A stretch of DNA of 26,396 nucleotides, taken from positions 1 through 26,396 of the forward strand of contig JBFLYA010000031.1 of assembly GCA_040757115.1 (NCBI GenBank), in the 5' to 3' direction. A program made the position numbers and the translations under genes. This document shows, one piece after another, positions 82 to 19,487 of this stretch; within the stretch, counting starts at the first letter, position 1, and every line of letters begins with the position of its first letter. This stretch comes from a bacterium. GTDB taxonomy: Bacteria; UBA9089; CG2-30-40-21; SBAY01. The notes beneath the pieces were generated by a model, which saw only the letters and a list, made by a program, of their open reading frames with translations, ran no database searches and had not been told where the DNA came from.

Positions 82-646
82 GTAACTATTCAGCCACAGA
101 TGGACACGGATGAAACACTAAAAATTCGGTGGTGTCTGAAAATAACTCTAATAGTGAAATCTATGCAGATTTGGTGTCCAAAAGGGATTTCCTCCAAAGA
201 GCAAAATGCAAAAAGCAAATATAAAAATTACATATCAAAATGTAAAATTATCTCTTTCCTTTCAGCGTTAAAATACTTGAAGCAAAGATATTACCAAATT
301 CCTCCAACTCTTTGAGAAATCCTGTTACTTCCTCTTTGAAATTTGATTTGTAATTTTGCATTTTGATATTTAATATTTGATATTTATTTGTTGTCTCCCT
401 CAAATCCTATTTTGCAGAACCCTATACACTATTTTAACCTTTATGCTAGATTAAGACACCACTAAAAATTCATGAATCGTGTCCGGTATCCGTGTCCGTT
501 TGTCCTTTGCCTTCTACCCTCTGCCCTCTACCCTCTGCTATTTATCCGTGCTAATCCGTGTTAATCAGCGGTTGAATAGTTATTTTATTTCTATATTTTC
601 TCTGTTCCTCTGCGTCTGTGCGGTAAAGGACTACCTGAACGGTTAC
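82..646. repeat. Composite GTAAC-family repeat region holding MITE copy 1
   Basis: This fills the gap between the partial gene at 1-55 and the OB-fold gene. It opens with a GTAACTATTCAGCCAC end at 82-97, followed by the 'cagatggacacggatgaaac' interior seen again at 4662 and, inverted, near 10550. Right-hand ends occur at about 573-583 (TGAATAGTTAT) and at 636-646 (TGAACGGTTAC). The second is preceded by the 'ctgcgtct..gcggtaa' arm typical of the elements at 7200 and 17570. No matching target duplication is visible, so it is probably a recombined remnant of two elements. No gene is supported here. Confidence 0.7.
128..463. mobile_element. MITE-like element, copy 1 (GGTGGTGTCT ends)
   Basis: A 336-bp non-coding element with inverted ends, GGTGGTGTCT at left and AGACACCAC(T) at right. 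It is flanked by the direct repeat aaaaattc at 120-127 and 464-471, an 8-bp target duplication. Nearly the same sequence recurs at 5058-5413. It has inserted into an older GTAAC-family repeat: the 'gatgaaacactaaaaattcg' text is split by it. The open frame inside also appears in copy 2 and matches no protein, so I treat it as non-coding. No transposase is present, so it is non-autonomous. Confidence 0.85.
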
Positions 647-3487: not shown

Positions 3488-3596
3488 GTAAACATTCAAA
3501 AGTTAGTTTTCAGCCATTAGTATTTAGATTCAGCATTCTACATCTTGTATCTTGCATCCTCTCTTAACTGCTGATATCTGCTCGCTGAACGCTTAC
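3488..3596. repeat. Short GTAAC-family repeat between the two trkA genes
   Basis: A 109-bp insert with inverted ends GTAAACATTCA (3488-3498) and TGAACGCTTAC (3586-3596), a diverged version of the GTAACYRTTCA family. The interior is low-complexity 'ctacatcttgtatcttgcatcc' type sequence. I see no clean target duplication. The right end supplies the TAA stop of the upstream trkA. Confidence 0.6.
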
Positions 3597-4201: not shown

Positions 4202-4222
4202 TTATTTTCCCTCCAAAATTAT

Positions 4223-4976
4223 GTAACCATTCAGCCACAGAGGCACAGAGTTCACAGAGAATTAGAGAAATTAGCTACAAATGGACACGAATTAACCTCT
4301 GACATTCGATAAATGTAGTGCGAACCTTATTGCTTTTTCATAAATAGGTTCCTCTTTTGGGGAGAGCGATAGCAAGAAGAACTTTAATGTAAATATCAAA
4401 ATGCAAATATCAAAATTACAATGCAAAATGCAAAAATACTTGTAAATTAACAAAGTAGCTGGAGAATATTTTGATTTTTGATTTGTAATTTTACATTTTG
4501 ATGTTTGATTTTTAATTTATTTTATGGTATTCCAGAAAAGTGGAAGTTAATTTTGCAAAAACCATTAGGTTCGCTTTCCTGCTTGCCAGAAGCGAGGCTA
4601 AAGCCTCGCACTACAAATCTTTTTATTCGTGTTCATTCGTGGTTAGTAACTATTCAGCCACAGATGGACACGGATGAAACACTGAAAATTCGTAATCCGT
4701 GTCCGTTTTCCGTGTCCGTAATTAGGCTGAAGAGTTTTTCTCCTTTTGACTTTTATCTTCTATCCTTCTTGATTCTCTGCCAGTGGAGGAAATTTCCACC
4801 CCCTAACCCCCGCCAGCGGGGGACAACCCGCCTCTGCCCTCTGCCCTCTGCTCTCTGCCCTCTATCCTCTGCCCTCTGTATTTATCCGTGCTAATCCGTG
4901 TTAATCAGTGGCTGAATAGTTACCGTGGTTATATATTCCCTCTGTGTTCTCTGTGACTATATCCCTGAACGGTTAC
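4223..4976. mobile_element. GTAAC-family element with 8-bp target duplication, carrying a nested second element
   Basis: Ends are GTAACCATTCAGCC at left and CTGAACGGTTAC at right. They are flanked by the exact 8-bp direct repeat aaaattat at 4215-4222 and 4977-4984. Without the nested element at 4646-4923 and its duplication it would be about 468 bp. The arms carry 'cacagag' repeats. The interior has A/T-rich 'caaaatgcaaatatcaaaat' text and a hairpin GCGAGGCT..AGCCTCGC at 4592-4609. No intact gene lies inside. It has inserted between the trkA promoter and the trkA ribosome site. Confidence 0.88.
4646..4923. mobile_element. GTAAC-family element nested inside the 4223-4976 element
   Basis: A 278-bp element with perfect inverted ends, GTAACTATTCAGCCAC and GTGGCTGAATAGTTAC. 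It is flanked by the exact 8-bp duplication cgtggtta at 4638-4645 and 4924-4931. The interior has the 'cagatggacacggatgaaac' and 'ccgtgctaatccgtgttaat' text found in other copies. It interrupts the older outer element, giving a clear order of insertion. Confidence 0.9.
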
Positions 4977-4992
4977 AAAATTATTAAAGGGT

Positions 4993-5021
4993 ATCATATC
5001 ATAAAATATGTCCTTTGTCAA
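4993..5021 (-). promoter_or_regulatory. Probable original promoter of the trkA-trkH operon
   Basis: On the minus strand: -35 TTGACA (5016-5021), a 17-nt spacer, and -10 TATGAT (4993-4998), a near-consensus sigma70 promoter. Transcription should start near 4986, just before the mobile element that ends at 4976. If the element and one target copy are removed, the start lies about 30 nt from the trkA ATG with its GGAGGG site, which is a normal leader. Confidence 0.8.
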
Positions 5022-5057
5022 CTTTAAAAAATTATCCTGTCCATCTGGGCAAATCTG

Positions 5058-5413
5058 GGTGGTGTCTGAAAATAACTCTAATAGTGAAATCTATGCAGAT
5101 TTGGTGTCCAAAAGGGATTTCCTCCAAAGAGCAAAATGCAAAAAGCAAATATAAAAATTACATATCAAAATGTAAAATTATCTCTTTCCTTTCAGCGTTA
5201 AAATACTTGAAGCAAAGATATTACCAAATTCCTCCAACTCTTTGAGAAACCTTGTTACTTCCTCTTTGAAATTTGATTTGTAATTTTGCATTTTGATATT
5301 TATATTTGATATTTAATATTTGCTATTTGATATTTATTTGTTGTCTCCCTTAAATCCTATTTTGCAGAACCCTATACACTATTTTAACCTTTATGCTAGA
5401 TTAAGACACCACC
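5058..5413. mobile_element. MITE-like element, copy 2 (GGTGGTGTCT ends)
   Basis: A 356-bp near-identical copy of 128-463. Both ends read GGTGGTGTCT (inverted), and the flanking 8-bp duplication is caaatctg at 5050-5057 and 5414-5421. It differs from copy 1 mainly by an extra stretch of 'atatttgatatttaatatt' type repeats near 5300. It ends 12 nt from the acyP stop codon. Confidence 0.88.
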
Positions 5414-5425
5414 CAAATCTGCGTC

Positions 5426-5710
5426 CTATCTATGTCCATATTTTATTTCAAATGTAGAAAATTCTCCGGTATAATCTTCGTAAGTCATTTCAACATTTTT
5501 AACACTTGCCCCGGGAGGACCTTTATGGCACCAGGAGATGATTTTTTCTACTTGTGCTTCTTCTCCTTCAAATACTGCTTCTACTCTCCCATCCGGGAGG
5601 TTTTTTACCCAGCCATTAATTTCTAATCTTTTTGCAGAATCTTGAGTATATGCTCTGAAGAATACTCCCTGGACATCGCCAGAGATATAGAGATGTGCTC
5701 TTATGTTCAT
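5426..5710 (-). CDS. acyP: Acylphosphatase
   Basis: A 94-residue cytosolic enzyme that hydrolyses carboxyl-phosphate bonds in acyl phosphates. The family signature is complete: GDVQGVFFR with catalytic Arg19, and [17 protein letters not shown] with Asn37. Length is typical of the single-domain family. It stands alone between a MITE on its 3' side and a GTAAC element 56 bp upstream of its start. The promoter is not obvious in the short upstream stretch. Confidence 0.96.
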
Positions 5711-5824
5711 AACTTCATTACTTCCTAACTTCCAAACTTCGTAATTTCCTGACTTTTCATTAGACGTAACTATTCAGCATACCAAGCAAGTAGGAAGTAG
5801 GAAGTAGGAAAGGGGGAAAATACT

Positions 5825-5953
5825 TCATACTATTTTACTCTTAATTGATTTGATTAAACCTATAAGCATCCTACTCACTTCTTCAGATATATCCCAAATG
5901 GATTGAAAATCTGGCAGATAATTAAGATCTTTAGATAGAATTAGATAATGCCT
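5825..5953 (-). pseudogene. C-terminal fragment of a four-helix-bundle (23S rRNA intervening-sequence type) protein
   Basis: An open stretch on the minus strand reads ..RHYLILSKDLNYL.. then SEEVSRMLIGLIKSIK and a TGA stop. This resembles the C-terminus of the four-helix-bundle family (S23/IVS, related to Avd), where a 'lilaKDLGYL...seEvsrmL.GLIksl' pattern is typical (from memory). No start codon or N-terminal half is present; the frame runs into the 'tttcctac' repeats. I read it as the decayed cargo of the element. Confidence 0.65.
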
Positions 5954-6204
5954 TTCCTACTTTCCTACTCTCCTACTTCCTACTTTCAGGAGGAAATAGT
6001 AGGCAAGTAGGTAGTAGGAAAGGGATAAAGGATGTGCACGGTATTCCTCTTTTGGGGACAATGTCTCCCCTTTCCTACTTTCCTACTTTCCTACTCTCCT
6101 ACTTCCTACTTTCAGGAGGAAATAGTAGGCAAGTAGGTAGTAGGAAAGGGATAAAGGATGTGCACGGTATTCCTCTTCTGGGGACAATGTCTCCCCTTTC
6201 CTAC
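5953..6204. repeat. Two tandem 126-bp units
   Basis: The unit contains 'tactttcaggaggaaatagt', 'gatgtgcacggtattcctct' and 'ggggacaatgtctcccc'. It repeats with a 126-bp period and very few differences (for example cttttgg versus cttctgg). The 'ggggacaatgtctcccc' part is a palindrome. It lies inside the 5766-6235 element. The open frame across it is an artefact. Confidence 0.85.
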
Positions 6205-6237
6205 TCTCCTACTTTCCTACAGGGTGAATAGTTACCA

Positions 6238-7140
6238 TTAGACATATTTTTTATGAAGAAAAGGTAGTTTTTTTGAAGGAGTAATTAAGTTTTGAAGTAG
6301 ATAAAGTCTCATATCACGCGAGGCAACGGCAATATGTTTTGCATTAGGAGTAATATCTACTTCATAAACACTTCCTTTTGTTTCATATTTCCAGATTTCT
6401 TTTCCTGCTTTATTAAATAAATAAACATAATTATTATTTACTCCCGCAGCTATAAATTCACCATCAGGTGTAATTCTAACTCCATAAATTTCTCCCCCAA
6501 TATATTTTTTGAAGAGTAATTTACCCTTTTTATTTAAAAGGTAAATATATTTATCTTCGCCACCAGCTATAATTCGATTACCATCAAAGGAGATATCAAC
6601 ATCATAAACCTCGCCATTTGTTTCAAATCTCCATAACAACTTTCCGTTTTTATTCTGAAAGTAAATATATCTATCTCCACAACCCGAGACAATATATTCC
6701 GCTGCGGGTGTAAGTGCTACGCCACTAATCATTTGACTTACTCCATATCGCCAGAGGAGTTTTCCATTTATTACATCTAAAAGTCCTATTTTCCAATCAG
6801 CAGTGCCAACCGCAATATAATCTCCTCCTGGAGTAATAGAAACGCTATTTACATCGCCCCCGGTTTTATATTTCCATAGCAATTCACCTGTATTATTAAA
6901 GAAACAAACATCATAATCACCAGTTCCAGCAACAATATAGTTCCCTTTATAGGTAATATCTACGGAATGTACCCATTGTCCAATTTCATATTCCCAGAGT
7001 TTATTACCTGTTCCATCTAAGAAATAAAGATTTTTATCATTGGCACCTACAACTATATATTTAGCATCATGGGTAATGGCAACACAAAAAACACTTTCTC
7101 GAATGTTATAACTCCATTTTTCTTTGACTAATTCTGGCAT
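6238..7140 (-). CDS. Stand-alone seven-bladed beta-propeller (WD40/PQQ-like) protein
   Basis: A 300-residue protein built of seven units of about 40 residues. Each has the pattern LLWKY....V.SV.ITP.G.YI..GT.D..IY..N..GK; examples are KLWEYEIGQWVHSVDIT, LLWRFETNGEVYDVDIS and EIWKYETKGSVYEVDIT. No signal peptide or second domain is visible, so it is probably a cytosolic scaffold or sensor-like propeller. I start at the internal ATG at 7140. The longer frame begins with a GTG that lies within the end of a mobile element at 7200, so those extra residues are repeat-derived. An AGGA motif precedes the chosen ATG at about 11 nt. Partner and function are unknown. Confidence 0.85.
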   Translation of the reverse strand: MPELVKEKWSYNIRESVFCVAITHDAKYIVVGANDKNLYFLDGTGNKLWEYEIGQWVHSVDITYKGNYIVAGTGDYDVCFFNNTGELLWKYKTGGDVNSVSITPGGDYIAVGTADWKIGLLDVINGKLLWRYGVSQMISGVALTPAAEYIVSGCGDRYIYFQNKNGKLLWRFETNGEVYDVDISFDGNRIIAGGEDKYIYLLNKKGKLLFKKYIGGEIYGVRITPDGEFIAAGVNNNYVYLFNKAGKEIWKYETKGSVYEVDITPNAKHIAVASRDMRLYLLQNLITPSKKLPFLHKKYV

Positions 7141-7199
7141 AGATAGAAATTCCTGGTAACTATTTAGTGTGATAAGAAGATGGAATGTTGAGATTTTTC

Positions 7200-7446
7200 G
7201 GTAACCGTTCACCGCAGAGACGCAGAGAAAAAAATTAAAAACTATTTGTCATACGTTTCATTCCATCTTTGATTTTCATCAGAGCAAACTTTTTAGGATT
7301 GACATATCATAATTGATTAACAAATTTGGTTTTGATGTCCTATGTATTACAAAGATTACCTCAATAATCTTTTCTGTGATCTGATTTATTTCTATGTCTT
7401 CTCTGTTTCTCTGCGTCTCTGCGGTAAATTACCACCTGAACGGTTA
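7200..7446. mobile_element. GTAAC-family element carrying a GxxExxY gene remnant
   Basis: An element of about 247 bp with ends GGTAACCGTTCA and TGAACGGTTA, flanked by the exact 8-bp direct repeat gatttttc at 7192-7199 and 7447-7454. The boundary is uncertain by 1 bp. Inner arms read 'accgcagagacgcagag' and its inverse. It is the inverted counterpart of the element at 17570-17863: both share the same arms and the same degenerate coding stretch. Confidence 0.85.
7235..7395 (-). pseudogene. Internally deleted GxxExxY-family gene
   Basis: On the minus strand the start region reads (I)EINQITEKII....IHRT, close to the N-terminus of GxxExxY proteins (INEITEKIIG.AIEVHR.LGPGL). The end reads SILK, a 23-nt out-of-frame insert with TGATGA, then DGMKRMTNSF and TAA, like the family's usual C-terminus. 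The ATG is ATA, and most of the middle, including the GxxExxY motif, is gone. This is a pseudogene inside a mobile element. Confidence 0.65.
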
Positions 7447-7495
7447 GATTTTTCCTCTTCGCACCTTTTCATAACTGATTATCGAATATTCTTCC

Positions 7496-7856
7496 TGGTG
7501 GAGGCGGCGGGAATCGAACCCGCGTCCGAAGATACAAAGACATAAGCCTCTACACATCCATTGTCTGAGATTTTAGTTTTCACTTCCTTAATCTCCTCTC
7601 AGACAGGATACAAAGGAAATTAGCTTATTTTTTCTCGCTACTTTTGCCCAAGCAAAGCAATAAGTAACCAGTCTGTTAAACTAACACCCTTAATAATTCT
7701 ACAGACAAGAATTATCAGGATGTGCTGCTAAATTAAGCAGCAAGTGCCAGATCGTAGTTGGCGTTTATTGGTTTTGCTGTCTGTTTAACGAGGCCTGACA
7801 GCACCTCGGGATGCAACCTATATTTTGTTTATCTCCGTCGAACCCTTTTCGCCCCC
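7496..7856 (-). ncRNA. ssrA: Transfer-messenger RNA (tmRNA)
   Basis: A 361-nt tmRNA. The 5' end GGGGGCGAAAAGGGTTCGACGG and the 3' end GGGTTCGATTCCCGCCGCCTCCACCA form the tRNA-like domain, with a 7-bp acceptor stem GGGGGCG/CGCCTCC and an encoded CCA. The tag frame at 7733-7777 reads AKPINANYDLALAA then TAA, ending in the usual ALAA degron. It rescues stalled ribosomes together with SmpB, whose gene is at 15367-15825. A sigma70 promoter copied from smpB lies about 115 nt upstream of the mature 5' end, so a precursor leader of roughly 105 nt must be removed. Confidence 0.97.
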
Positions 7857-7885
7857 TTTTTTTTTTACCCCAGAGAACACATGTT

Positions 7886-7951
7886 TTAACCGAGGCTCTG
7901 ATTGTTATATGTATTTAGAGAGTAATTACTGCATATTGTCTTCAGGGGCAC
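7886..7951 (-). pseudogene. Truncated copy of the smpB start upstream of ssrA
   Basis: Reading leftwards from a GTG at 7951, the first nine codons (V/M P L K T I C S N) match the smpB start (M T L K T I C S N) with one substitution. The frame then diverges and stops after 21 codons at a TAA (7886-7888). The copy keeps the GGTGGAAAGAAA ribosome-site region and the promoter. Similarity to 15800-15884 is about 93% over roughly 85 nt. Confidence 0.8.
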
Positions 7952-7969
7952 TTTCTTTCCACCAGTTTA

Positions 7970-7998
7970 AGTATACCATATTTTAAGAAAAATTACAA
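7970..7998 (-). promoter_or_regulatory. ssrA promoter (duplicate of the smpB promoter)
   Basis: On the minus strand: -35 TTGTAA (7993-7998), a 17-nt spacer, and -10 TATACT (7970-7975). The intact smpB gene has the same layout and nearly the same bases at 15844-15872. Transcription would start near 7963. Confidence 0.85.
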
Positions 7999-8063
7999 CT
8001 ATTTTTTATCAGTTGGGTGTATGTAAAATTTGTGGATAACTTTTAACACCTCTATTTTTATCA

Positions 8064-8303
8064 ATTTCCTCCAAAGAGCAAAATGCAAAACTCGTTTATA
8101 GTGTATAGTTTATAGTTTATAGTTTATAGTGTATAGTTTATAGTTTATAGTTTATAGTTTATGGTTTATAGTCTATAGTCCTTCAACTATCAACTATCAA
8201 CTATCTACTATCAACTATAAACTATCAACTATCTTTGCCAAAGTTCAGTAAAATTATCTCTTTCCTTTCAGCGTTAAAATACTTAAAGCAAAGATATTAC
8301 CAA
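8064..8303. repeat. Decayed third MITE copy split by heptamer repeats
   Basis: 8064-8090 matches the left-centre of the GGTGGTGTCT MITE ('cctccaaagagcaaaatg'), and 8248-8303 matches the next part ('tctctttcctttcagcgtta', 'agcaaagatattaccaa'). The two parts are separated by the heptamer array at 8094-8234. Neither MITE end is present. The rest of 7999-8392 holds only similar low-complexity text and no gene. Confidence 0.75.
8094..8234. repeat. Opposed heptamer arrays (TATAGTT)n and (AACTATC)n
   Basis: About a dozen TATAGTT-type heptamers run from 8094 to 8180, followed by about seven AACTATC/AACTATA heptamers to 8234. The second set is essentially the reverse complement of the first, so the transcript or single strand could fold as one long hairpin. 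Confidence 0.85.
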
Positions 8304-8392
8304 TCTTCATTCTTCTGCAATTTCTGCCTGCTTTAGTCTGAGGTCTGATGTCTATAGTCTACTGTCTGAATCACAGATTTTTTTTAAAATGC

Positions 8393-8422
8393 TTGACAAA
8401 AATTTAATTAATATGCTATTAT
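8393..8422 (+). promoter_or_regulatory. Promoter upstream of the radical SAM gene
   Basis: -35 TTGACA (8393-8398), an 18-nt spacer ending in TGC (extended -10), and -10 TATTAT (8417-8422). It is about 200 nt before the ATG at 8623. The intervening leader (8430-8622) holds no recognised riboswitch and no gene. Confidence 0.75.
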
Positions 8423-8622
8423 ATAATCATAAGGGATGAGGAATTAAATCCCCCTTTCAATTGTAGATAGGAATCAGAAACAAGAGATATCGCTATATCT
8501 TATTGAAAATCAAATGGTTATGTTAAATTTTTGTCTTTAAATAGAGGGGAAGTTCCGTTATAAGGATCCCCATCTTTACATATTATCAAATTCCCATCAG
8601 TTTTAGGAGACCAAACCTTAAA

Positions 8623-10212
8623 ATGAAACCACAAATTTTAATTATTGTGCCAAAACAACTCAATCTTGAAAAAGCTAATTACAACTACAACTTTCCATTA
8701 GGATTAGGCTATATCTCTTCAATTTTAAAAAAAAATGGGTATAATGTAGATTGTATTAACTTAAACCATTATGAAGGGAAAACTGAGAATTTAGTAAAAT
8801 CTTCTTTAAGTAAAAAAGAATATGATTTTGTTGGAATTGGGAACATTGCTTTAGGATTTAATTCTACCAAAATAATTATAGATAGCATAAGAGAATATAA
8901 TCCTAAAATAAAAATTATCATTGGAGGAATGATTATTATTGCTGATCCAAAATTAATGTTTCCTCTTTTAAATCCTGATTTTGGAGTTATAGGAGAAGGT
9001 GAAGAAACAATTATAGAGCTTCTTGAGGCAATTGAGAATAAAAAAGATTTAAAAAATATTAAAGGCCTTATTTTTAAAGATGTAAAAGGAGATATAATTT
9101 TAACAGAGCAGAGAGAGCCTATAAAAGATATTGATTCTTTGCCTTGGCCTGATTTTGAAGGCCTTGAATATTTAGAGTTTATAGAGCATCTTCATCCTAA
9201 TTTTGGGAATGCATATAATTTTTTTGACAATCCGCGTCCTTACCCTATTTTAGGAAGCAGGGGATGCCCGTTCCATTGCACTTTTTGCTATCATTACAGC
9301 AATTACAGAGCAAAGTCTGTTAGAAGTATTGTTGAAGAGATTCGAGTAGCAATAGAAAAATACAGGATAAATATAATTGCATTCTATGATGAATGTATTT
9401 CAGTAAACAAACTAAGATTATTTGAAATTTGCGAAGAAATAAAAAAATTAAGAGAAGAAACTCCATGGAACTTAAACTGGATACCTCAGATGACAGTGCA
9501 TAACATTGATGAAGAGGTTCTTAAAAGAATAAAAGAGTCTGGAGGAGCTATAATAAGCTATGGTTTTGAAAGTTTTTCAGAAAAAGTTTTAAAGAGCATG
9601 AGGAAGCCAATTACGCCGCAGATGATTGAAAATGCTTTTTTAAAAACAATAAACGCAGGAATAGGGGTTCAGGGGAATTTTATTTTCGGAGATGTCGCTG
9701 AAACAAAAGAAACAGCAAAAGAAACTTTAGACTGGTGGAAAAAAAATGCAAAAGGTCAGATAAACCTGGGTTTTATCCAGCCTTATCCTGGAAGCGAAAT
9801 CTACAAGCATTGCGTGAGAAAAGGGATAATAAAAGATGAGGCAAATTTTATAAAAAGTCAGCTTTCAACAATGCATTATTACAACATGACTGAAAACATG
9901 ACTGATAAAGAATATGCTAAAATGAAAAAAGAAATATTTAATGCAGTTGTAAAATATCATATATTTACAAAGCATAAAATAAAAAGATTGGTTGAAAATG
10001 TCTATGAAGTAAATGTTAAATGCCCTTTCTGCCAAAAAATAATCACTTACAAAAATATTCTTATAGAAGATCCTATTTTATATGGATTTTGGCTTTATTG
10101 CAGAAATTGCCATCAAAGATTCTTCATAGTAAGTCCTTTAAAAAGACTTTCATATAAATTTTACTCTTATTTAAAATTCTTACAAGAACGAAGGGATAAA
10201 AAGAAATACTAG
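8623..10212 (+). CDS. B12-binding-domain radical SAM protein with C-terminal zinc ribbon
   Basis: A 529-residue enzyme of the cobalamin-binding-domain radical SAM superfamily. Residues about 1-150 form the B12-binding-like Rossmann domain (PLGLGYISSILKKNGY; DFGVIGEGEETI). No clear DxHxxG is seen, so cobalamin may not bind through a lower histidine. The 4Fe-4S motif CPFHCTFC has cysteines at 215, 219 and 222, followed by a radical SAM barrel (ISYGFESFSEKVL). A C-terminal four-cysteine ribbon (C467, C470, C493, C496) is an uncommon addition. Its AGGAGA ribosome site is rather far from the ATG (about 13 nt). Codon use looks more A-rich than the downstream sugar genes, possibly a separate origin. 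Substrate unknown. Confidence 0.88.
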   Translation: MKPQILIIVPKQLNLEKANYNYNFPLGLGYISSILKKNGYNVDCINLNHYEGKTENLVKSSLSKKEYDFVGIGNIALGFNSTKIIIDSIREYNPKIKIIIGGMIIIADPKLMFPLLNPDFGVIGEGEETIIELLEAIENKKDLKNIKGLIFKDVKGDIILTEQREPIKDIDSLPWPDFEGLEYLEFIEHLHPNFGNAYNFFDNPRPYPILGSRGCPFHCTFCYHYSNYRAKSVRSIVEEIRVAIEKYRINIIAFYDECISVNKLRLFEICEEIKKLREETPWNLNWIPQMTVHNIDEEVLKRIKESGGAIISYGFESFSEKVLKSMRKPITPQMIENAFLKTINAGIGVQGNFIFGDVAETKETAKETLDWWKKNAKGQINLGFIQPYPGSEIYKHCVRKGIIKDEANFIKSQLSTMHYYNMTENMTDKEYAKMKKEIFNAVVKYHIFTKHKIKRLVENVYEVNVKCPFCQKIITYKNILIEDPILYGFWLYCRNCHQRFFIVSPLKRLSYKFYSYLKFLQERRDKKKY

Positions 10213-10698
10213 TGCTGTGTCGCTACTCAATTGATGTTCCCCGCTGGCGGCGGATTAAGGGGGTGGAATATGAAATCTGAAATAGAAAAATGCAGCCCCC
10301 AATAATTAACAATTGACAATTTACAATTAACAATTGACCATTATTTGTTAATTTTGTCAACATCAAATATTAATTGTGAATTGATAATGGCTAATTGATA
10401 ATTGTCAATTAACTATATTTGGACTTGTGGGTAACGATAAGACTCCCGCCAGCGGGGGGGATTAAGGGAGTGGAAATGAGAAGAAGAAAAGCCCTTCAGC
10501 CTTCAGCCTGATTACAGACACGGATACCGGAGATGCCTCACCGATTTTTCCGTGTTTCATCCGTGTCCATCTGCGGCTGAATAGTTACGATTTGGTTTAT
10601 AATTCTTCGTACCCTTCGTGTTCTTCGTGATTTTAAAAGATGTGAGGAAGGTTAATCTAATCGCACAGGTGGAAAATTTCATTTAATGAGGTAACTTA
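10213..10698. repeat. Intergenic repeat region with no gene
   Basis: The 486 bp between the radical SAM gene and rfbF. It holds two copies of a 'ggattaaggg.gtggaa' block next to ccgcyggcgg palindromes (10239-10269 and 10444-10475). An inverted AT-rich repeat, 'aattgacaatttacaatt' against 'gataattgtcaattaac', spans about 10305-10412. A GTAAC-family right end, GGCTGAATAGTTAC, lies at 10575-10588 without a visible left partner. No convincing promoter for rfbF is seen. Confidence 0.7.
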
Positions 10699-11484
10699 AT
10701 GTCTAAAGTAGTTATTTTATGTGGTGGAATGGGTACCAGATTACGGGAGGAAACTGAAATTCGACCGAAACCATTAGTTGAAGTAGGAAATAAACCCATC
10801 CTCTGGCACATTATGAAGATTTATTCATATTATGGATTTAATGATTTTATTCTTTGTCTGGGTTACAAAGGAGAGATGATTAAAAACTATTTCTATAACT
10901 ATGAAATGCTAAATAATGATTTTACCATAGAATTAGGTAACTCTAAAAATATAGAGATTTACAGCCATCATAAAGAAAAGGACTGGCGAGTTACACTGGT
11001 TGATACCGGAGCAAATGCCTTGAAAGGGGCGAGGATAAAAAAAATAGAAAAATATATCGATAGCGACCTGTTTATGCTGACTTATGGAGATGGCGTAGCT
11101 AACATCAATCTCCATGAATTGTTATCCTTTCATAAGAGTCATGGTTGTATTGGAACGGTAACTGGTGTCCGACCGATGTCGCGATTTGGGGAATTAATAG
11201 TTAAAGAAAATAGAGTTATCTCATTTACAGAAAAGCCCCAGGTTTCTTATGGAATAATAAATGGGGGGTTTTTTGTTTTTAATCGAAAAATCTTTGACTA
11301 TTTATCTGAAAATGATAGTTGTGATTTTGAAATAGGACCGTTAGAACAATTAGCCAGAGAAGGCGAATTAATGGTCTATGACCTCAAAGGAGCATGGGAG
11401 TGTATGGATACCTTTAGGGATACTCAGCATCTTAATAATTTGTGGAAAAATAAAAAGGCATTCTGGAAAGTTTGGGAGGAGTAA
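10699..11484 (+). CDS. rfbF: Glucose-1-phosphate cytidylyltransferase
   Basis: A 261-residue nucleotidyltransferase making CDP-glucose from CTP and glucose 1-phosphate, the first step of CDP-3,6-dideoxyhexose synthesis. It has the family start LCGGMGTRLREET..RPKPLVEVG with the GGMGTRL loop at 9-15 and Lys24, then LTYGDGVANI and the CDP-glucose-type ending (SCDFEIGPLEQLA, GAWECMDTFRD). Length is normal. A GAGGT ribosome site precedes the ATG. It begins the rfbF-cupin-rfbG-rfbH-GT operon. Its last codons hold the ribosome site of the next gene. Confidence 0.96.
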   Translation: MSKVVILCGGMGTRLREETEIRPKPLVEVGNKPILWHIMKIYSYYGFNDFILCLGYKGEMIKNYFYNYEMLNNDFTIELGNSKNIEIYSHHKEKDWRVTLVDTGANALKGARIKKIEKYIDSDLFMLTYGDGVANINLHELLSFHKSHGCIGTVTGVRPMSRFGELIVKENRVISFTEKPQVSYGIINGGFFVFNRKIFDYLSENDSCDFEIGPLEQLAREGELMVYDLKGAWECMDTFRDTQHLNNLWKNKKAFWKVWEE

Positions 11485-11488
11485 AAAA

Positions 11489-11950
11489 ATGGATAATAAC
11501 CAGATTGAAGGCGTGGTTATAAAACCACTAAAAAAAATACCGGATGAAAGAGGTTCTATCTGTCTCATGTTAAGATGGGATGACCCAATTTTTGAGAGAT
11601 TTGGAGAGATATATTTTTCTTTAGCCTATCCTGGAGTTATTAAAGCCTGGCACCTACATGAAAAAATGACGCTAAATTATGCGGTTATTCAAGGAATGAT
11701 AAAACTTGTCCTTTTTGATAATAGGGAAAACTCATCTACAAAAGGTAATTTAATGGAAGTGTTTATTGGTGAAGAAAATTATTCTTTAGTTAAAATTCCA
11801 CCAAAAATTTGGAATGGATTTAAATGTATTGGAACAAAACAGACCATAGTGGCAAATTGTGCGACCTTACCTCATGACCCAGACGAAATTAAAAGAATAA
11901 ATCCTTTTACAAATGAAATACCTTACGATTGGGACCTAAAACATGGATAA
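11489..11950 (+). CDS. RmlC-like cupin, sugar-nucleotide epimerase family
   Basis: A 153-residue protein of the dTDP-4-dehydrorhamnose 3,5-epimerase (RmlC/RfbC) cupin family: KKIPDERGSICLML near the start, KAWHLHEKMTLNYAVIQG as the metal-free cupin core with a candidate base histidine, and NGFKCIG. The start is the ATG after GGGAGGAG, which overlaps the end of rfbF. Between rfbF and rfbG it is well placed to epimerise a CDP-4-keto sugar, as the CDP-ascarylose 5-epimerase does in Yersinia. The exact substrate is inferred from context. It overlaps rfbG by 8 nt. Confidence 0.85.
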   Translation: MDNNQIEGVVIKPLKKIPDERGSICLMLRWDDPIFERFGEIYFSLAYPGVIKAWHLHEKMTLNYAVIQGMIKLVLFDNRENSSTKGNLMEVFIGEENYSLVKIPPKIWNGFKCIGTKQTIVANCATLPHDPDEIKRINPFTNEIPYDWDLKHG

Positions 11951-13055
11951 ATATCTTAGACAAATATATGAAAATAGACGGGTGTTAGTTACAGGACATA
12001 CGGGATTCAAAGGCGGATGGTTATCAGTATGGCTTACAGAATTAAGGGCAAAGGTTATTGGTTACTCCCTCCAACCCCCTACACAACCAAATCTGTTTGA
12101 ATCTATAAATCTAAAAGATAAAATTGAACACATTATTGGTGATATTCGAGATGAAAAAAATTTGCTCGCTATCTTTGAAGAATATCAACCTGAATTTGTC
12201 TTCCACTTAGCGGCACAACCATTAGTGAGATTTTCTTATAAAGAACCAAAATTTACCTATGAAACAAACATCATGGGCACAGTAAACCTTTTAGAAGCAG
12301 TACGAAAATCCAAGAGTGTGAAAGTTTGTGTTATCATTACCAGTGATAAGTGCTATGAAAATAAAGAATGGATTTATGGTTATAGAGAAATAGACCCGAT
12401 GGGTGGCTATGACCCTTATAGTTCAAGTAAGGGGTGTGCTGAACTCATAACCGCTTCTTATAGAAATTCTTTTTTTAATCCTAAAGACTATGGGAAAATT
12501 CACCAGGTATCTCTATCATCTGTCCGAGCTGGAAATGTAATCGGTGGTGGAGATTGGGGGGAAGATAGACTTATTCCGGATTGTGTGAAATCATTTTCAA
12601 AAAATAAAACAGTTCTCATTCGTAATCCACACGCCACAAGACCCTGGCAATATATTTTGGAACCATTATCAGGTTATCTATTGCTGGGAGCGTTAATGTA
12701 TGAAAACGGAGCAAAATATAGTAGCGGGTGGAATTTTGGTCCAAACGATGAAAGTATAATAAAGGTGGAAGAAATAGTTAAATGTTTAATTAAACATTGG
12801 GGTAGCGGCGACTATCAAATAGACACTTCAAATGTCACTCAACCTCATGAAGCCAGCCTCTTAAAATTGGATATAAGTAAAGTTCGTGCTTTACTTGGTT
12901 GGAAACCTATTTATCATATCTATGAATCACTTGAAAAAACTATTATGTGGTATAAAAGTTTTTACAATGATGTTGGTCTGGAAAAGTTGTATGAAATTAC
13001 AGTCCAGGAAATTAGGAACTACATAAACTCTATAAATAGGAAGGAATTAAATTAA
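11943..13055 (+). CDS. rfbG: CDP-glucose 4,6-dehydratase
   Basis: A 370-residue extended short-chain dehydrogenase converting CDP-glucose to CDP-4-keto-6-deoxyglucose. The NAD-binding loop is TGHTGFKG (residues 17-24) and the catalytic pair is Y159-x3-K163 (YSSSK). [13 protein letters not shown] and [16 protein letters not shown] are typical of the CDP-glucose dehydratase subgroup. Length is normal. Its ATG lies inside the end of the cupin gene, showing coupling, and it is followed after 4 nt by rfbH. Confidence 0.96.
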
Positions 13056-13059
13056 GATA

Positions 13060-14370
13060 GTGGAAAATAAAGATTTAAAAAGTGAGATTTTTGAGATGGT
13101 TACCAGGTATTATGAAGAAAAACATAAACACAAACCATTTATACCTGGTAAAACACACATTCCGTATGCTGGTCGGGTCTATAACGAAGAGGAGATAATT
13201 TTTCTTGTTGATTCGGCTTTGGATTTCTGGCTGACAACTGGAAGATTTGCAGAACAATTTGAGAAGGAATTGAGTAAGTTTTTAGGGGTAAAACATTGTA
13301 TTCTCACTAACTCGGGTTCTTCTGCCAATCTTTTAGCTATTTCTGCTTTGACATCTCCTAAGTTAGGAGAAAGAAGGCTTAAACCAGGAGATGAAGTAAT
13401 CACTATAGCCTGTGGTTTCCCAACCACGGTGAATCCGATTATCCAGAATAATCTGGTGCCGGTATTTATAGATGTAGATATTGGGTCTTATAACATTCAA
13501 TCAGATAAAATTGAAGAGGCTTTATCTGAAAAGACAAAGGCTATTTTTTTAGCCCATACACTTGGTAATCCATTTGATTTAAACAAAATAATGTCCATTG
13601 CTCAAAAATATAATTTGTGGGTAATTGAAGATAACTGCGATGCTCTTGGCTCAAAATACAATGATAAATATACTGGCACCTTTGGACAGATAGGGACTTT
13701 AAGTTTTTACCCTGCTCACCACATCACTATGGGAGAAGGAGGGGCATTAATAACTAATGATACTCAGCTAAAGAGATTGATTGAATCTTTTAGAGACTGG
13801 GGTAGAGACTGCTGGTGTGAGCCAGGAAATGATAATACCTGTGGAAAGAGATTTTCACAGCAGTTGGGTAGGTTACCTTTTGGTTATGACCATAAGTATA
13901 TCTACTCTCATATAGGTTATAATTTAAAAATAACAGATATGCAAGCGGCAATAGGGATTGCTCAATTAAAAAAATTACCCTCATTTATTGAAGCCAGAAA
14001 GAAAAATTTTAATTTGCTTTATCAAGGGCTAAAGAAATATGAGGAAGTCTTCATCCTGCCACAACCTACTTCTAATTCACAACCAAGCTGGTTTGGATTC
14101 CCAATAACCGTAAGACAAAAGGCTAAATTTTCACGAGCAGAGATTGTTAATCATTTAGAAAAAAATAATATTGCTACCAGAATGCTTTTTGGTGGCAATT
14201 TAGTCAAACAACCGGCCTATCAAAATGTGAATTATCGCCTTATAGATTCGTTAAAAAATACAGATTTTGTCATGGATAATACCTTTTGGTTGGGTGTATA
14301 TCCTGGCTTAACTGAGGAAATGATTGAATTTATTCTTAAAACAATAGCCTCTAAATTGCGAGGGATATGA
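13060..14370 (+). CDS. rfbH: CDP-4-keto-6-deoxyglucose 3-dehydrase (E1), PMP and [2Fe-2S] enzyme
   Basis: A 436-residue aminotransferase-fold enzyme that removes the C3 hydroxyl from CDP-4-keto-6-deoxyglucose. Two hallmarks identify E1. The PLP lysine is replaced by histidine in [13 protein letters not shown] (His220). The iron-sulfur cysteines C193, C251, C253 and C261 keep the C-x57-C-x1-C-x7-C spacing known for E1. It starts with GTG with a weak, distant AGGAAGG site, so it probably depends on coupling with rfbG. It overlaps the glycosyltransferase start by 4 nt. Catalysis needs an E3 reductase, not found in this window. Confidence 0.96.
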
Positions 14371-15362
14371 TGGTTGATTTAACTATATCGATAATTAATT
14401 TTAATAATGAAAAGTTATTAGAAGAGTGTCTAACATCTATTTATGAAACCGCTAAAAAGATTAGCTTTGAAATATGGGTAGTGGATAATTACTCAATGGA
14501 TAACAGTGTAGAAATGGTTCGAACTAAATTCCCACAAGTTAATCTAATAGTCAATCCCCACCATAAAGGTTTTTCTACCAATCATAACCAGGTGCTATCG
14601 CGGATGAACGGCAGGTATGCTTTAATCTTAAGTGATGATGTGATTGTAAAACCAAATGCCCTTGATTATATGGTCGAGTTTATGGATGAACATTCTGATA
14701 TAGGAATATTAGGGCCAAAGGAGTTTTTCCCGGATGGAAGATTGCAAAAATTTCATTGTTTGGAAATACGCTCTCCCTGGTCTGAATTTTTAGAGGCATT
14801 TATGATTAGTCCTTTTTTAAGAAGGGTTTTTCCTGAACTAAGATTTCCAGGACAATTGTATATGTCTTCGCTCAAAGATTATAACTATGCTCATGAGGTA
14901 GCTTCTGTTCATGGAAGTTGTCTGATGGTGAGAAAAAAGATGTTAGACCAAATTGGGCTCATGGAAGAAAAATATTATTTCTATTATGAAGAACCGGATA
15001 TATGCCTTCGGGCTAAAAAAGCAGGCTATAAAGTCTATTATACCCCAGATGCACAAATAATCCACTATTTTGCCGCTACCACTCGAAAATCTAATCCATT
15101 TTTTATGATAGATAAATCTTTAAATGCCCTCCATTCTTTTTATAAAAAATTCTATGGTTTATCTGGCTCTATTTTAGTTGGATGTATTACCATTGCCTCT
15201 TCAATATTTATCTTATTCACCTTCCCTTTTGTCTATATATTTGATGTGAAAAAGAGAGATGTGATAAAAAGAGGTATAAAATCTAATTTACTGGTTCTTC
15301 ATTGGTATTTTACCTTCGGAGGACGATTCTCTTCTAAGAAGAAGAATGTGTATCTTGACTAA
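14367..15362 (+). CDS. GT2-family glycosyltransferase with a C-terminal membrane segment
   Basis: A 331-residue GT-A fold transferase of the WbbL-like GT2 type. It has [20 protein letters not shown] at the start, VVDNYSMD (D40), SDD at 89-91 as the metal-binding DxD equivalent, and [22 protein letters not shown] as the acceptor-side motif. A hydrophobic stretch at about 270-293 should anchor it to the inner membrane face. It probably adds the deoxyhexose made by the preceding genes to a surface polysaccharide. Donor and acceptor are inferred. It ends 4 nt before the convergent smpB stop. Confidence 0.9.
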
Positions 15363-15366
15363 CCTT

Positions 15367-15825
15367 CTATTTCCTCATAGTTTCTTTCATCGCCCGTCTC
15401 ATTTCTTTTTCATGGTCTCTTTTCTTAATTACCGCACGCTTATCATAAAGTTTTTTACCTTTACCTAATCCTAATTCTAACTTTACCTTTCCTTTTTTAA
15501 AGTATAATCTTAATGGAATTAAGCTAAGTCCTCTTTCTTGCGTCTTCCCTATCAATCTTTTGATTTCTTCTTTTTTTAAAAGGAGCTTACGAATCCTTGT
15601 CGGCTCATGATTTTGAATATTTCCATACGGATATTGATTTATATGACAATTAAATAAAAAAACCTCTTCATTTTCTACCCTGGCTAAACTATCCTGTAAA
15701 TTTGCTTGATGATTTCGTAATGATTTAACCTCTGTTCCTCGAAGGCAAATACCTGCCTCGTAAGTTTCTAAAATTTCATAATCATGGTATGCTTTACGAT
15801 TACTACATATTGTCTTCAGGGTCAC
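15367..15825 (-). CDS. smpB: SsrA-binding protein SmpB
   Basis: A 152-residue RNA-binding beta-barrel protein that carries tmRNA to stalled ribosomes. The family landmarks are complete: NRKAYHDYEILETYEAGICLRGTEVKSLR at the start (positions 9-37), the NQYPYGNIQNHEPTR loop, LYFKKGKVKLELGLGKGKKLYDKR, and a basic tail from about 135. It starts with GTG, with GGTGG about 10 nt before. The promoter at 15844-15872 predicts a leader of only about 12 nt. Its RNA partner ssrA is 7.5 kb away and carries a copy of this gene's promoter and first codons. Confidence 0.97.
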   Translation of the reverse strand: MTLKTICSNRKAYHDYEILETYEAGICLRGTEVKSLRNHQANLQDSLARVENEEVFLFNCHINQYPYGNIQNHEPTRIRKLLLKKEEIKRLIGKTQERGLSLIPLRLYFKKGKVKLELGLGKGKKLYDKRAVIKKRDHEKEMRRAMKETMRK

Positions 15826-15843
15826 TTTCTTTCCACCATTTCA

Positions 15844-15872
15844 ACTATACCACATTTTAAGAAAAATTACAA
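15844..15872 (-). promoter_or_regulatory. smpB promoter
   Basis: On the minus strand: -35 TTGTAA (15867-15872), a 17-nt spacer, and -10 TATAGT (15844-15849). It is the counterpart of the ssrA promoter at 7970-7998, sharing the AAAATTACAACTATTTTTTAT block just upstream. Confidence 0.82.
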
Positions 15873-15899
15873 CTATTTTTTATATTCCCTGTTTTTTTA

Positions 15900-15928
15900 T
15901 TGACTTTTAGATGAACAATGATTATAAT
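15900..15928 (+). promoter_or_regulatory. Promoter of the VapBC-type operon
   Basis: -35 TTGACT (15900-15905), a 17-nt spacer, and a consensus -10 TATAAT (15923-15928). The antitoxin ATG is about 100 nt further on, with an imperfect inverted repeat in between. Confidence 0.8.
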
Positions 15929-15934
15929 ATAAAA

Positions 15935-16012
15935 GTCAGTAGTCAGTGAAGAGAAAACAGTAATTAGAGAAAAGTGATTATTGTTTCACTTTTCGCTTCT
16001 CACTGTTCACGG
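15935..16012. repeat. Imperfect inverted repeat in the vapBC leader
   Basis: 'gtcagtgaagagaaaacag' at left is roughly inverted by 'cacttttcgcttctcactg' at right. It lies between the promoter and the GGAGG site, so it would form a hairpin in the mRNA leader. It could be a small mobile repeat or an autoregulatory operator for the antitoxin; sequence alone does not decide. Confidence 0.55.
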
Positions 16013-16031
16013 TTAAAGGAGGTTACTTACT

Positions 16032-16223
16032 ATGGGTTCTACGGCGAAGTTAAGCAGTAAATATCAAATTGTTATCCCTAAAAAAATAAGACGAGAATTA
16101 AACCTGAAATCAGGTGATGAATTAATAATGAAGATTGAAGATGATAAGATAATTATGCGGGCAAAACCTAAGAGTTATACCGACTATATGTTAGGATTAG
16201 GTGAAAAAGTCTGGAAGGAATAA
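16032..16223 (+). CDS. vapB: AbrB/MazE-fold antitoxin (VapB-like)
   Basis: A 63-residue swapped-hairpin AbrB-type DNA-binding antitoxin: KLSSKYQIVIPKKIRRELNL, then KSGDELIMKIEDDKIIMRAK, with a short C-terminal tail (YTDYMLGLGEKVWKE) expected to wrap the toxin. GGAGG lies 9 nt before the ATG. The stop is followed after 2 nt by the PIN toxin gene. By analogy with the family it should repress its own promoter. Confidence 0.9.
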   Translation: MGSTAKLSSKYQIVIPKKIRRELNLKSGDELIMKIEDDKIIMRAKPKSYTDYMLGLGEKVWKE

Positions 16224-16225
16224 TT

Positions 16226-16690
16226 ATGAACAAATTAGAAAAATTTCTGAAAGGACATCATGTTATAGGATTAGATGCACAAATCTTTATTTATCTTTTT
16301 GAAAATAATCCGAGATTTAAACCAGTTACAATCGCCCTATTTAGTCTAATGGAGCAAGGAGAAATAATTGGTGTTACATCTATTCTATCTCTTCTTGAAA
16401 TTCTTATCAAACCGATGGAGAAACAAGAACATCATTTGATAAATGAATATAAATTTTTGCTTAATACATTTCCGAACTTGATTATTGGGAAAATTGATGA
16501 AGAGATAATCGATTTAGCCGCATCTTTCAAAGCAAATTATTCTTTTTTGGATGATACTTTTGCCATTCAATTAGCTACCGCTAAATTATACGACGCCGAG
16601 TGTTTCATTACTCATAACCAATCGCTGAAAAAAATGCGAGAGATTAAAATAATTAATATAGCCGAGATTTTAGAAAAGGTAGAAGATTGA
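16226..16690 (+). CDS. vapC: PIN-domain ribonuclease toxin (VapC-like)
   Basis: A 154-residue PIN domain. Acidic metal ligands are D17 (GLDAQIFIYL), E58 (LSLLEILIKP) and D109/D110 (SFLDDTFAIQLATA). The late motif usually read as TxD is THN here (129-131), so one conserved acid is replaced. Gene order and spacing with the AbrB antitoxin make it a type II toxin, probably an RNA endonuclease. Its TGA overlaps the next ATG by 1 nt (TGATG). Confidence 0.9.
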   Translation: MNKLEKFLKGHHVIGLDAQIFIYLFENNPRFKPVTIALFSLMEQGEIIGVTSILSLLEILIKPMEKQEHHLINEYKFLLNTFPNLIIGKIDEEIIDLAASFKANYSFLDDTFAIQLATAKLYDAECFITHNQSLKKMREIKIINIAEILEKVED

Positions 16691-17532
16691 TGAGACGATT
16701 TATCTTGTTTTTAATATTATTTTTTGGAATCTCATTTTTATTTTATATCACCATTTTAAGAGATTTCAAACCAACTACCATTAACATTTCTGGCTATCTT
16801 TCACTTGAAGAGAGGGTTAGTGCTGAAGGAGTGAAGGTTGAAGTCGTTCCATTTTATCCTAAAAGGATTTTTAGAAAACCTGTCCAACATTTCTTTACCG
16901 ACTCAACAGGATTTTACAAATTAGAAGAAATTGAAGTCCCTATTGGACCTTTGGGTGAAATTTTTGTTTTATGGTTAGATGGTCAGAAAAAAAAGGCACC
17001 ATATTTAAAGTTAAGAATTATTAAAAAAGGTTACCTTCCGGTGGAAGTTCTAATATTCAAATTTACACCCATAGTCAAAATACCATTTCTAACTTTAGAT
17101 AAGGAAGGAACACGAAAACCACTAAATGAAGTCATTTCTGAAAATGGTATTAAAATTGTAAAAAATATCACCAGGTATAGATTTTGTGCCCTTCATAATT
17201 ATCTATGGTTTTATCCAGAATACTACGACCTTGAACTTATAATTCCAACAGATAAACCAAAACAAAATGTCAAACTCAAACTTCGGTTGATTAATGAACC
17301 ACTTTACACCAATTTTGAGGAAGAACTTAATGAATCAGCCGATGAATTAAAAGGGATAATAAAGATACTTATTCCCGAAATTCCTGTCGAAGAGGTAAAA
17401 TTGCGTAGTGGAGAAAATGTGGCTAATTCATTATCTAACCCATCTTTACTGGATAAATTAAACGAAATCTTAATCAACTCTAAAATAAAACATATTCGTT
17501 TAACATCAATAGATTTAGTAAAGAAAAAGTAA
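16690..17532 (+). CDS. Membrane-anchored protein with a carboxypeptidase-regulatory-like beta domain, function unknown
   Basis: A 280-residue protein. It starts MRRFILFLILFFG, a signal anchor to about residue 22. Residues about 30-115 look like an Ig/transthyretin-like domain (ISGYLSLEERVSAEGVKVEV, FFTDSTGFYKLEEIEVP, LRIIKKGYLPVEVLIF). The rest is charged and unrecognised. I use the ATG at 16690, which overlaps the toxin stop, rather than the TTG one codon earlier. The TAA stop is formed by the GTAACTG end of a mobile element at 17529, so the natural C-terminus may have changed. A link to the toxin pair is only positional. Confidence 0.75.
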   Translation: MRRFILFLILFFGISFLFYITILRDFKPTTINISGYLSLEERVSAEGVKVEVVPFYPKRIFRKPVQHFFTDSTGFYKLEEIEVPIGPLGEIFVLWLDGQKKKAPYLKLRIIKKGYLPVEVLIFKFTPIVKIPFLTLDKEGTRKPLNEVISENGIKIVKNITRYRFCALHNYLWFYPEYYDLELIIPTDKPKQNVKLKLRLINEPLYTNFEEELNESADELKGIIKILIPEIPVEEVKLRSGENVANSLSNPSLLDKLNEILINSKIKHIRLTSIDLVKKK

Positions 17533-17569
17533 CTGTTCAGCCACCAGGGCACAAAGACTCGAAGAAAAG

Positions 17570-17863
17570 GTAACCGTTCAGGTGGTAATTTACCGCAGAG
17601 ACGCAGAGGAACAGAGAAGATATGGAAATAAATCAGATAACAGAAAAGATTATTGGTATAGCCATTGAAATACTTAGGACCTGCTTGCCGAATGTTCAGC
17701 CGGCAAGCCAGATTTGTTAATCCATCCCTGATTTTCATCAGGGCAAGTTTAATGTTGTTGGACTCAAGAGCTTGCACTGATGAAAATCAGGGATGTTAAG
17801 CCTATCGTCCATAAATTTTAATTTTCTTCTCTGCGTCTCTGTGTCTCTGCGGTGAACGGTTAC
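17570..17863. mobile_element. GTAAC-family element carrying a GxxExxY remnant, nested
   Basis: A 294-bp element with perfect ends GTAACCGTTCA and TGAACGGTTAC, flanked by the exact 8-bp duplication aagaaaag at 17562-17569 and 17864-17871. Inner arms are 'accgcagagacgcagag' and its inverse. It also holds two inverted copies of a small palindrome (ccctgattttcatcaggg type) at about 17726-17745 and 17777-17794. Confidence 0.9.
17622..17821 (+). pseudogene. Internally deleted GxxExxY-family gene
   Basis: The ATG at 17622 starts MEINQITEKIIGIAIEILRT, which looks like the N-terminus of GxxExxY proteins. The end reads FNVVGLK, a 23-nt out-of-frame insert (with TGATGA), then DVKPIVHKF and TAA. The centre is missing. 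The insert sits at the same point as in the copy at 7235-7395, so both elements descend from one already-broken ancestor or from a shared sub-insertion. Confidence 0.7.
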
Positions 17864-17930
17864 AAGAAAAGATTATTTTATCTTCGTGGCTTCGTGGCTC
17901 AATAATTAAAGAAACAAGGATTAAAATATT

Positions 17931-19187: not shown

Positions 19188-19468
19188 GTAAGTGTTCAGG
19201 GTGTAATAAAGGAAAAATGGAAAAACCAGGGAAAAAGGGTAAATCTAAGAAGGGAAGAAATTAAGAGGTTGATAAGTCTGTCCTGGCGACAGGTCAGGGT
19301 GAGAGGTTAAGATGGATGTTTTGCTTCTCACAATCTCATCTTCTTAACTTCTTATCTTCTTTTCTTCCTTTCCCATTTTTTCCGTGTTTCCCCTTTTTCC
19401 CTATGGACACTACCTGAACGGTTACCTTTAATCTTTGTGTCGTGGTATCTTTGTGGCTGAACAATTAC
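19188..19468. repeat. GTAAC-family repeats between the RHS promoter and its ribosome site
   Basis: A left end, GTAAGTGTTCAGGGTGT, begins at 19188 and a matching right end, TACCTGAACGGTTAC, closes at 19425. The inner arms 'ggaaaaaccagggaaaaagg' and 'ttccccttt' are mirrored. A further right end, GTGGCTGAACAATTAC, lies at 19453-19468 with no left partner. No clean target duplication is visible. Confidence 0.65.
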
Positions 19469-19487
19469 AAAAAGGAGGTTGGTTAAA

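What the first reader, a model, noticed from the sequence alone, without database searches (positions are those of the whole stretch)
4215..17871. A family of small GTAACYRTTCA-ended cassettes with 8-bp target duplications
Four elements (4223-4976, 4646-4923, 5766-6235, 17570-17863) begin GTAACYRTTCA, end with the inverse, and are flanked by exact, different 8-bp direct repeats: aaaattat, cgtggtta, cattagac, aagaaaag. A fifth (7200-7446) has gatttttc with 1-bp ambiguity. Further ends without clear duplications lie at 82, 3488, 10588, 17529 and 19188-19468. The elements differ in their interior text, so the ends move while the cargo varies. This is direct evidence that 'human-readable' intergenic repeats of this genome are mobile. 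No transposase is present here, so mobilisation must be in trans.
Basis: seen in the sequence. Interest (0 to 1): 0.85.

Follow-up and report, generated by a model that had tools for sequence, protein, structure and literature searches.

The report
IS66-type miniature transposons (MITEs)
The short repeats between genes in this uncultured bacterium are small, recently mobile DNA elements without genes of their own, almost certainly moved by transposases of the known IS66 family; there are hundreds per genome and they differ even between two closely related species.

Summary
GTAACYRTTCA ends occur 1065 times in the window's own genome (22 for the reversed control). In 1.36 Mb sampled, 32 of 106 adjacent inward-facing pairs carry an exact 8-bp duplication (0.4 expected), with nothing above chance at 4-6 or 9-12 bp. 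Five clean empty sites with one exact 8-mer were seen in a same-genus genome about 98% identical; window 17570-17863 is one. Others are polymorphic the other way. So the elements are real and recently mobile. They are MITEs of 157-754 bp, protein-free, intergenic, in at least ten families. Two end classes (GTAACTATTCA; GTAA[C/G][C/T]GTTCA) pair almost only with themselves. Full-length elements with the same ends encode an ISBst12-like IS66 transposase, in this genome (decayed) and in relatives; one has a perfect 8-bp duplication. Published IS66 elements have the same start and 8-bp duplications. No intact cognate transposase was found in the assembly, so mobilisation in trans is inferred. I found no earlier report of IS66-derived MITEs in the papers searched, but each component is a known kind. 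Verdict: new member of a known kind.

The parts
4223..4976 (.). Outer MITE, ends GTAACCATTCA/GTAACCGTTCA; 8-bp TSD AAAATTAT at 4215-4222 and 4977-4984
   Evidence: exact TSD; same insertion with the same TSD in G001 (L180 from 4066); with the nested insert removed it aligns over 451 bp at 96.7% with L114:148-597
4646..4923 (.). MITE nested inside 4223-4976, end class TATTCA; TSD CGTGGTTA
   Evidence: exact TSD; paralogous uninterrupted copy L114
5766..6235 (.). MITE, end class TATTCA, internal repeats; TSD CATTAGAC
   Evidence: exact TSD; same family with TSDs at L107:4964-5430 and L091:14973-15298; G001 keeps one CATTAGAC before ATATTTT, left flank altered by other indels
7201..7447 (.). Older MITE, end class GTTCA, last base mutated; imperfect TSD ATTTTTCG/ATTTTTCC
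   Evidence: 7/8 match; left end with the same flank in G001 (L180:6211)
17570..17863 (.). MITE, end class GTTCA; TSD AAGAAAAG
   Evidence: exact TSD; empty in G001 with a single AAGAAAAG at G001:C32 17421-17428, 292 bp aligned without gaps
17529..17539 (+). Solo end GTAACTGTTCA, no partner with an exact TSD; also present in G001
   Evidence: L180:17388
82..646 (.). Decayed region with ends at 82, 583 and 646 and no TSD; hosts the IS1-like insert 128-463
3488..3596 (.). Decayed pair of ends (GTAAACATTCA/GTAAGCGTTCA), no TSD; also present in G001
10578..10588 (-). Solo end GTAACTATTCA
19188..19468 (.). Decayed cluster of ends (19188, 19425, 19468), no TSD

Best explanation
[quoted passage not shown] An IS66 TnpC (DDE transposase) made elsewhere in the cell recognises the 11-14 bp ends, cuts or copies the element and joins it to a staggered, AT-rich intergenic target, leaving an 8-bp duplication. 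Two cognate end classes, GTAACTATTCA and GTAA[C/G][C/T]GTTCA, are used by different TnpC lineages and rarely combine. Shown here: ends, 8-bp duplications, empty sites, nesting, end-class pairing, and IS66 elements with the same ends. Inferred: that TnpC moves the MITEs in trans, and that each end class has its own TnpC.
For: 1065 ends in the genome against 22 for the reversed control. 32 of 106 adjacent pairs with exact 8-bp duplications against 0.4 expected, none at 5, 6 or 9-12 bp. Empty sites in the same-genus genome: window 17570-17863, L039:3060-3314, L049:9751-10004, L092:9796-10049, L122:11027-11572, and L103:12919-13076 with one changed base in the 8-mer. Converse case: G001 element L180:14102-15097 absent from the window. 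Nested 4646-4923: removing it restores an outer element that aligns with L114. End classes: 12 TA/TA, 24 non-TA/non-TA, 1 mixed of 37; 16.8 mixed expected, 0 of 20000 permutations as low. IS66 TnpC bounded by the same ends: G000:C277 3061-4623 and G004 L210:1971-3475, both NF033517 transpos_IS66 above cut-off. L221 is a full IS66 element with ends GTAACCGTTCAC and an exact 8-bp duplication AATTCTTT; the same ends bound IS66 homologues in Deltaproteobacteria, Planctomycetota, Krumholzibacteriia and Treponema. TATTCA-type ends bound an IS66 relic in G014 and lie beside IS66 fragments in G000:C130 and G005. Literature: ISDge4 (ISBst12 group) has GTGACTACTCAGCA/GTAACTGCTCAGCA and an 8-bp repeat (PMC12898284); IS66 ends start GTAAGCG with 8-bp repeats (PMC11946415); Pseudomonas IS66 ends GTAACCGTCCGGGCA and GTAAGCGTCCGG (PMC12888890).
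Against: No intact cognate TnpC was found in the window's genome (C277 has two internal stops) or in G001, G008, G013 and G015, some of which have hundreds of ends. Three near-complete or partial IS66 copies with these ends in the phylum lack an 8-bp duplication. MITE interiors share no stretch of 24 bp or more with the five IS66 elements compared, so they are not plain deletion derivatives of those copies. About 70% of adjacent pairs have no exact duplication (decay, wrong pairing or recombination).
Confidence: 0.87

Rival explanations
1. They are true MITEs with 8-bp duplications, but another DDE transposase family (for example the intact IS6/IS256-like ORFs seen in relatives) moves them; the IS66 elements share the ends by chance or convergence.
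For: No intact cognate TnpC in several heavily colonised assemblies; intact unrelated transposase ORFs exist in G001 and G007.
Against: The same 11-12 bp ends bound IS66 TnpC in several phyla, once with an 8-bp duplication; published IS66 elements have the same start and duplication length; no GTAAC-type ends flank the unrelated ORF of G001 (L067) or G007 (L075).
Confidence: 0.08
2. The repeats are immobile now: old elements whose apparent polymorphism reflects deletion or homologous recombination between repeats.
For: Many ends lack duplications; intact transposase not seen.
Against: Five joined flanks match the relative through the junction with exactly one 8-mer; precise deletion of element plus one duplication at many sites is unlikely, and polymorphism goes both ways.
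Confidence: 0.04
3. Non-transposon intergenic repeats (REP-like or regulatory palindromes) with chance flanking repeats.
For: Long imperfect palindromes and almost strictly intergenic positions.
Against: 8-bp duplications at roughly 80 times the chance rate and only at that length; empty sites.
Confidence: 0.01

Closest known systems
IS66 family, ISBst12 group (for example ISDge4 of Deinococcus geothermalis)
   Same: Ends almost identical (GTAACTGCTCAGCA against GTAACTATTCAGCA), 8-bp target duplication; single-ORF TnpC in the full-length relatives found here.
   Different: The window elements carry no transposase and are 157-754 bp; ten or more interior families unrelated to tnpC.
Prokaryotic MITEs (Chunjie of Geobacter uraniireducens, Correia of Neisseria, ERIC, QMITE of Coxiella)
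   Same: Short, AT-rich, intergenic, imperfect palindromes with terminal inverted repeats and target duplications, presumed moved in trans.
   Different: The IS66 link is tested here; many families and two end classes coexist in one genome. The 2024 review of prokaryotic MITEs has no mention of IS66. The duplication length of Chunjie was not checked: the paper was not read.
TIMEs and TIME-COMPs (Tn3-derived miniature elements)
   Same: Non-autonomous ends that can move intervening DNA as a composite, as in L122:11027-11572.
   Different: Tn3 ends; here IS66-type ends and 8-bp duplications.

Membership tests
MITE | short, no coding capacity, terminal inverted repeats | tested here: met
   37 TSD-bearing elements of 157-754 bp; 11-14 bp terminal inverted repeats, often extended to 40-115 bp imperfectly
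MITE | constant-length target site duplication | tested here: met
   8 bp only
MITE | multiple copies and evidence of movement | tested here: met
   families with up to 17 sampled copies; empty sites in G001
MITE | ends shared with an autonomous element | tested here: met
   IS66 elements C277, L210 and L221 with the same 11-12 bp ends
MITE | transposition in trans by the partner's transposase | not testable with these tools
   needs an experiment
IS66-type ends | terminal inverted repeat starting GTAA | tested here: met
IS66-type ends | 8-bp direct repeats | tested here: met
   full element L221
IS66 family (full element) | encodes TnpC with DDE_Tnp_IS66 | tested here: not met
   the window elements encode nothing, so they are IS66-derived or IS66-dependent, not IS66 elements; the proposed partners do encode it
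ISBst12 group (proposed partners) | single ORF, no tnpA or tnpB | tested here: met
   the L210 element of 1505 bp holds one transposase ORF of 468 aa; C277 is similar but has two stops

The most novel reading that the evidence does not exclude
IS66-type ends sustain a multi-family MITE population on an unusual scale: about a thousand ends per genome, two nearly orthogonal end classes, nested and composite units, across a small candidate phylum and at least one genome outside it. They would explain a large part of the word-like intergenic repeats (such as CTCTGCGTCTCTGCGGTGAACGGTTAC and CTTGGTGGCTGAACGGTTAC) seen in environmental genomes.
Probability: 0.4. Interest if true: 0.6.

Novelty: new member of a known kind. 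Interest (0 to 1): 0.45.

Why it matters
It turns anonymous intergenic repeats into a record of transposition: two species about 98% identical differ at many sites. It supplies a precise test (TnpC plus marked ends) of whether IS66 transposases act in trans and how they tell two end classes apart. It also warns that such repeats break metagenome assemblies and are not conserved regulatory signals by default.

Tried and rejected
Simple capture of random cargo between moving ends: rejected as the main rule, since interiors fall into repeated families. MITEs as internal deletions of the known IS66 copies: no shared interior of 24 bp or more; one possible intermediate, G008 L297:1397 to about 1670, keeps a TnpC C-terminal relic between GTAACCGTTCACGG-like ends but has no duplication. 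G105 L295 first looked like an IS66 element whose right end is shared with MITEs; on reading the DNA that right end belongs to a separate MITE next to an IS66/HD fusion ORF, so this argument was dropped. Literature search for a repeat motif as a word gave nothing. L094:3397 and L045:15408 were set aside as empty sites because of local repeats or a second indel.

Full report
Observation. The ends GTAACYRTTCA are strongly over-represented in the window and in its genome: 525 forward and 540 reverse in 4.3 Mb, against 9 and 13 for the reversed pattern. All four claimed elements have exact 8-bp direct repeats. The fifth is 7201-7447 with a changed last base and a 7/8 repeat; its left end with the same flank is in the sister species.

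Statistics. I took 1.36 Mb of the genome. Of 106 adjacent inward-facing pairs of ends, 32 have an exact 8-bp duplication; shuffled flanks give 0.4. There is none at 5, 6 or 9-12 bp; two 7-bp cases (0.08 expected) and one 4-bp case (1.0 expected) remain. A peak at 8 bp is also seen in the same-genus genome G001 (18 of 68 pairs, 1.1 shuffled), in G008 of another family of the phylum (7 of 48) and in G105 outside the phylum (5 of 8).

Movement. G001 is about 98% identical over a syntenic 19-kb contig. Window 17570-17863 is missing there, and the two matching flanks overlap by exactly the 8-mer. Joined flanks of L039:3060-3314, L049:9751-10004, L092:9796-10049 and L122:11027-11572 also run through the junction with one 8-mer; L103:12919-13076 does so with one changed base. 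The reverse case exists: G001 element 14102-15097 (TATTTCTT) is absent from the window, and G001 6876-7313 is absent at a run of T. L054:1760-1994 and the outer element at 4223 are shared by both species. Hence there were insertions both before and after the split.

Nesting and composites. 4646-4923 lies inside 4223-4976. With it and one 8-mer removed, the outer element aligns over 451 bp at 96.7% with L114:148-597, an uninterrupted paralogue. L122:11027-11572 has the left end of one family and the right end of another, a perfect duplication TAAATATT, and an empty site in G001: the ends can move what lies between them.

Families and end classes. Clustering gave 17 groups of two or more and 21 singletons among 111 elements; the largest have 17 sampled copies, and 15 elements are exactly 237 bp. 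Bounded elements cover 28 kb of the 1.36 Mb sample, about 2%. In 37 elements with duplications the ends pair by class: 12 GTAACTATTCA-type with itself, 24 non-TA with non-TA, 1 mixed; 16.8 mixed would be expected. Targets are AT-rich (76% against 63%) and intergenic: 1 of 31 empty sites inside a 150-codon frame against 81% of random points.

Partner. A profile for IS66 transposase finds, in the window's genome, an element at C277:3061-4623 bounded by GTAACCGTTCAGGT at both ends, its TnpC broken by two stops. G004 holds an intact 468-aa TnpC between GTAACCGTTCACAGG and GTAACCGTTCACACC. Both pass the NCBIfam IS66 cut-off. A scan of named genomes gave L221, an Omnitrophota MAG, where the full element has an exact duplication AATTCTTT; the same GTAACCGTTCAC ends bound IS66 homologues in Deltaproteobacteria, Planctomycetota, Krumholzibacteriia and Treponema. 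IS66 relics with GTAACTATTCAGC ends occur in G000:C130, G014 and G005. Published IS66 elements have GTAAGCG or GTAACCG starts and 8-bp repeats, and ISDge4, of the ISBst12 group, has nearly the TATTCA-type end (PMC12898284, PMC11946415, PMC12888890). One MITE, L080:17213-17465, begins with the first 18 bases of the C277 element.

Limits. No intact cognate TnpC is in this assembly or in G001, and G013 and G015 show none at all. Multi-copy IS elements are often lost from short-read metagenome bins (general knowledge), and contigs C130 and C18 end inside IS66 sequence, so this absence is weak evidence. Three IS66 copies with these ends lack duplications. Movement by IS66 in trans is therefore the best inference, not a demonstration.

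Spread. Of 19 genomes of the phylum most show an excess of these ends, up to about 1000. In the genomes outside it TGAACGGTTAC is mostly at 0-5 copies, with G105 (71) as the clear exception. The phylum was not named by the tools; one hit of the related IS66 is in a Candidatus Desantisbacteria MAG, which is only a hint.

Novelty. MITEs, IS66 ends and 8-bp repeats are all known. A 2024 review of prokaryotic MITEs does not mention IS66, and my searches found no report of IS66-derived MITEs; the library lacks many subscription papers. I rate it a new member of a known kind, of moderate interest for its scale, its two end classes and its recent activity.

Noticed in passing
window 128-463 and 5058-5413; L052:2526-3795: A second MITE family with ends GGTGGTGTCT and exact 8-bp duplications (AAAAATTC, CAAATCTG); 8 of 10 pairs in the sample have exactly 8 bp. 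A 1270-bp element with the same ends and duplication CAATATTT carries two ORFs, one a weak IS1-transposase match below cut-off.
   Followed up: partly
window 7496-7856 (-): tmRNA gene, tag ANYDLALAA; in G001 a 438-bp element with these ends sits at the run of T next to it.
   Followed up: partly
window 19479-25649: 2056-aa RHS-repeat protein with two MAM-like stretches.
   Followed up: no
L295:1399-3102 (G105): One open frame joins the N-terminal part of an IS66 TnpC to an HD domain, downstream of a GTAACCGTTCACCC end; possible IS-driven gene fusion.
   Followed up: no
L297:1397 to about 1670 (G008): Fossil of an IS66 element reduced to its ends plus a TnpC C-terminal relic, a likely intermediate of MITE birth.
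   Followed up: no
window 8623-10212: Radical SAM protein with a B12-binding domain, followed by what look like nucleotide-sugar genes for surface polysaccharide (my reading of the ORFs).
   Followed up: no
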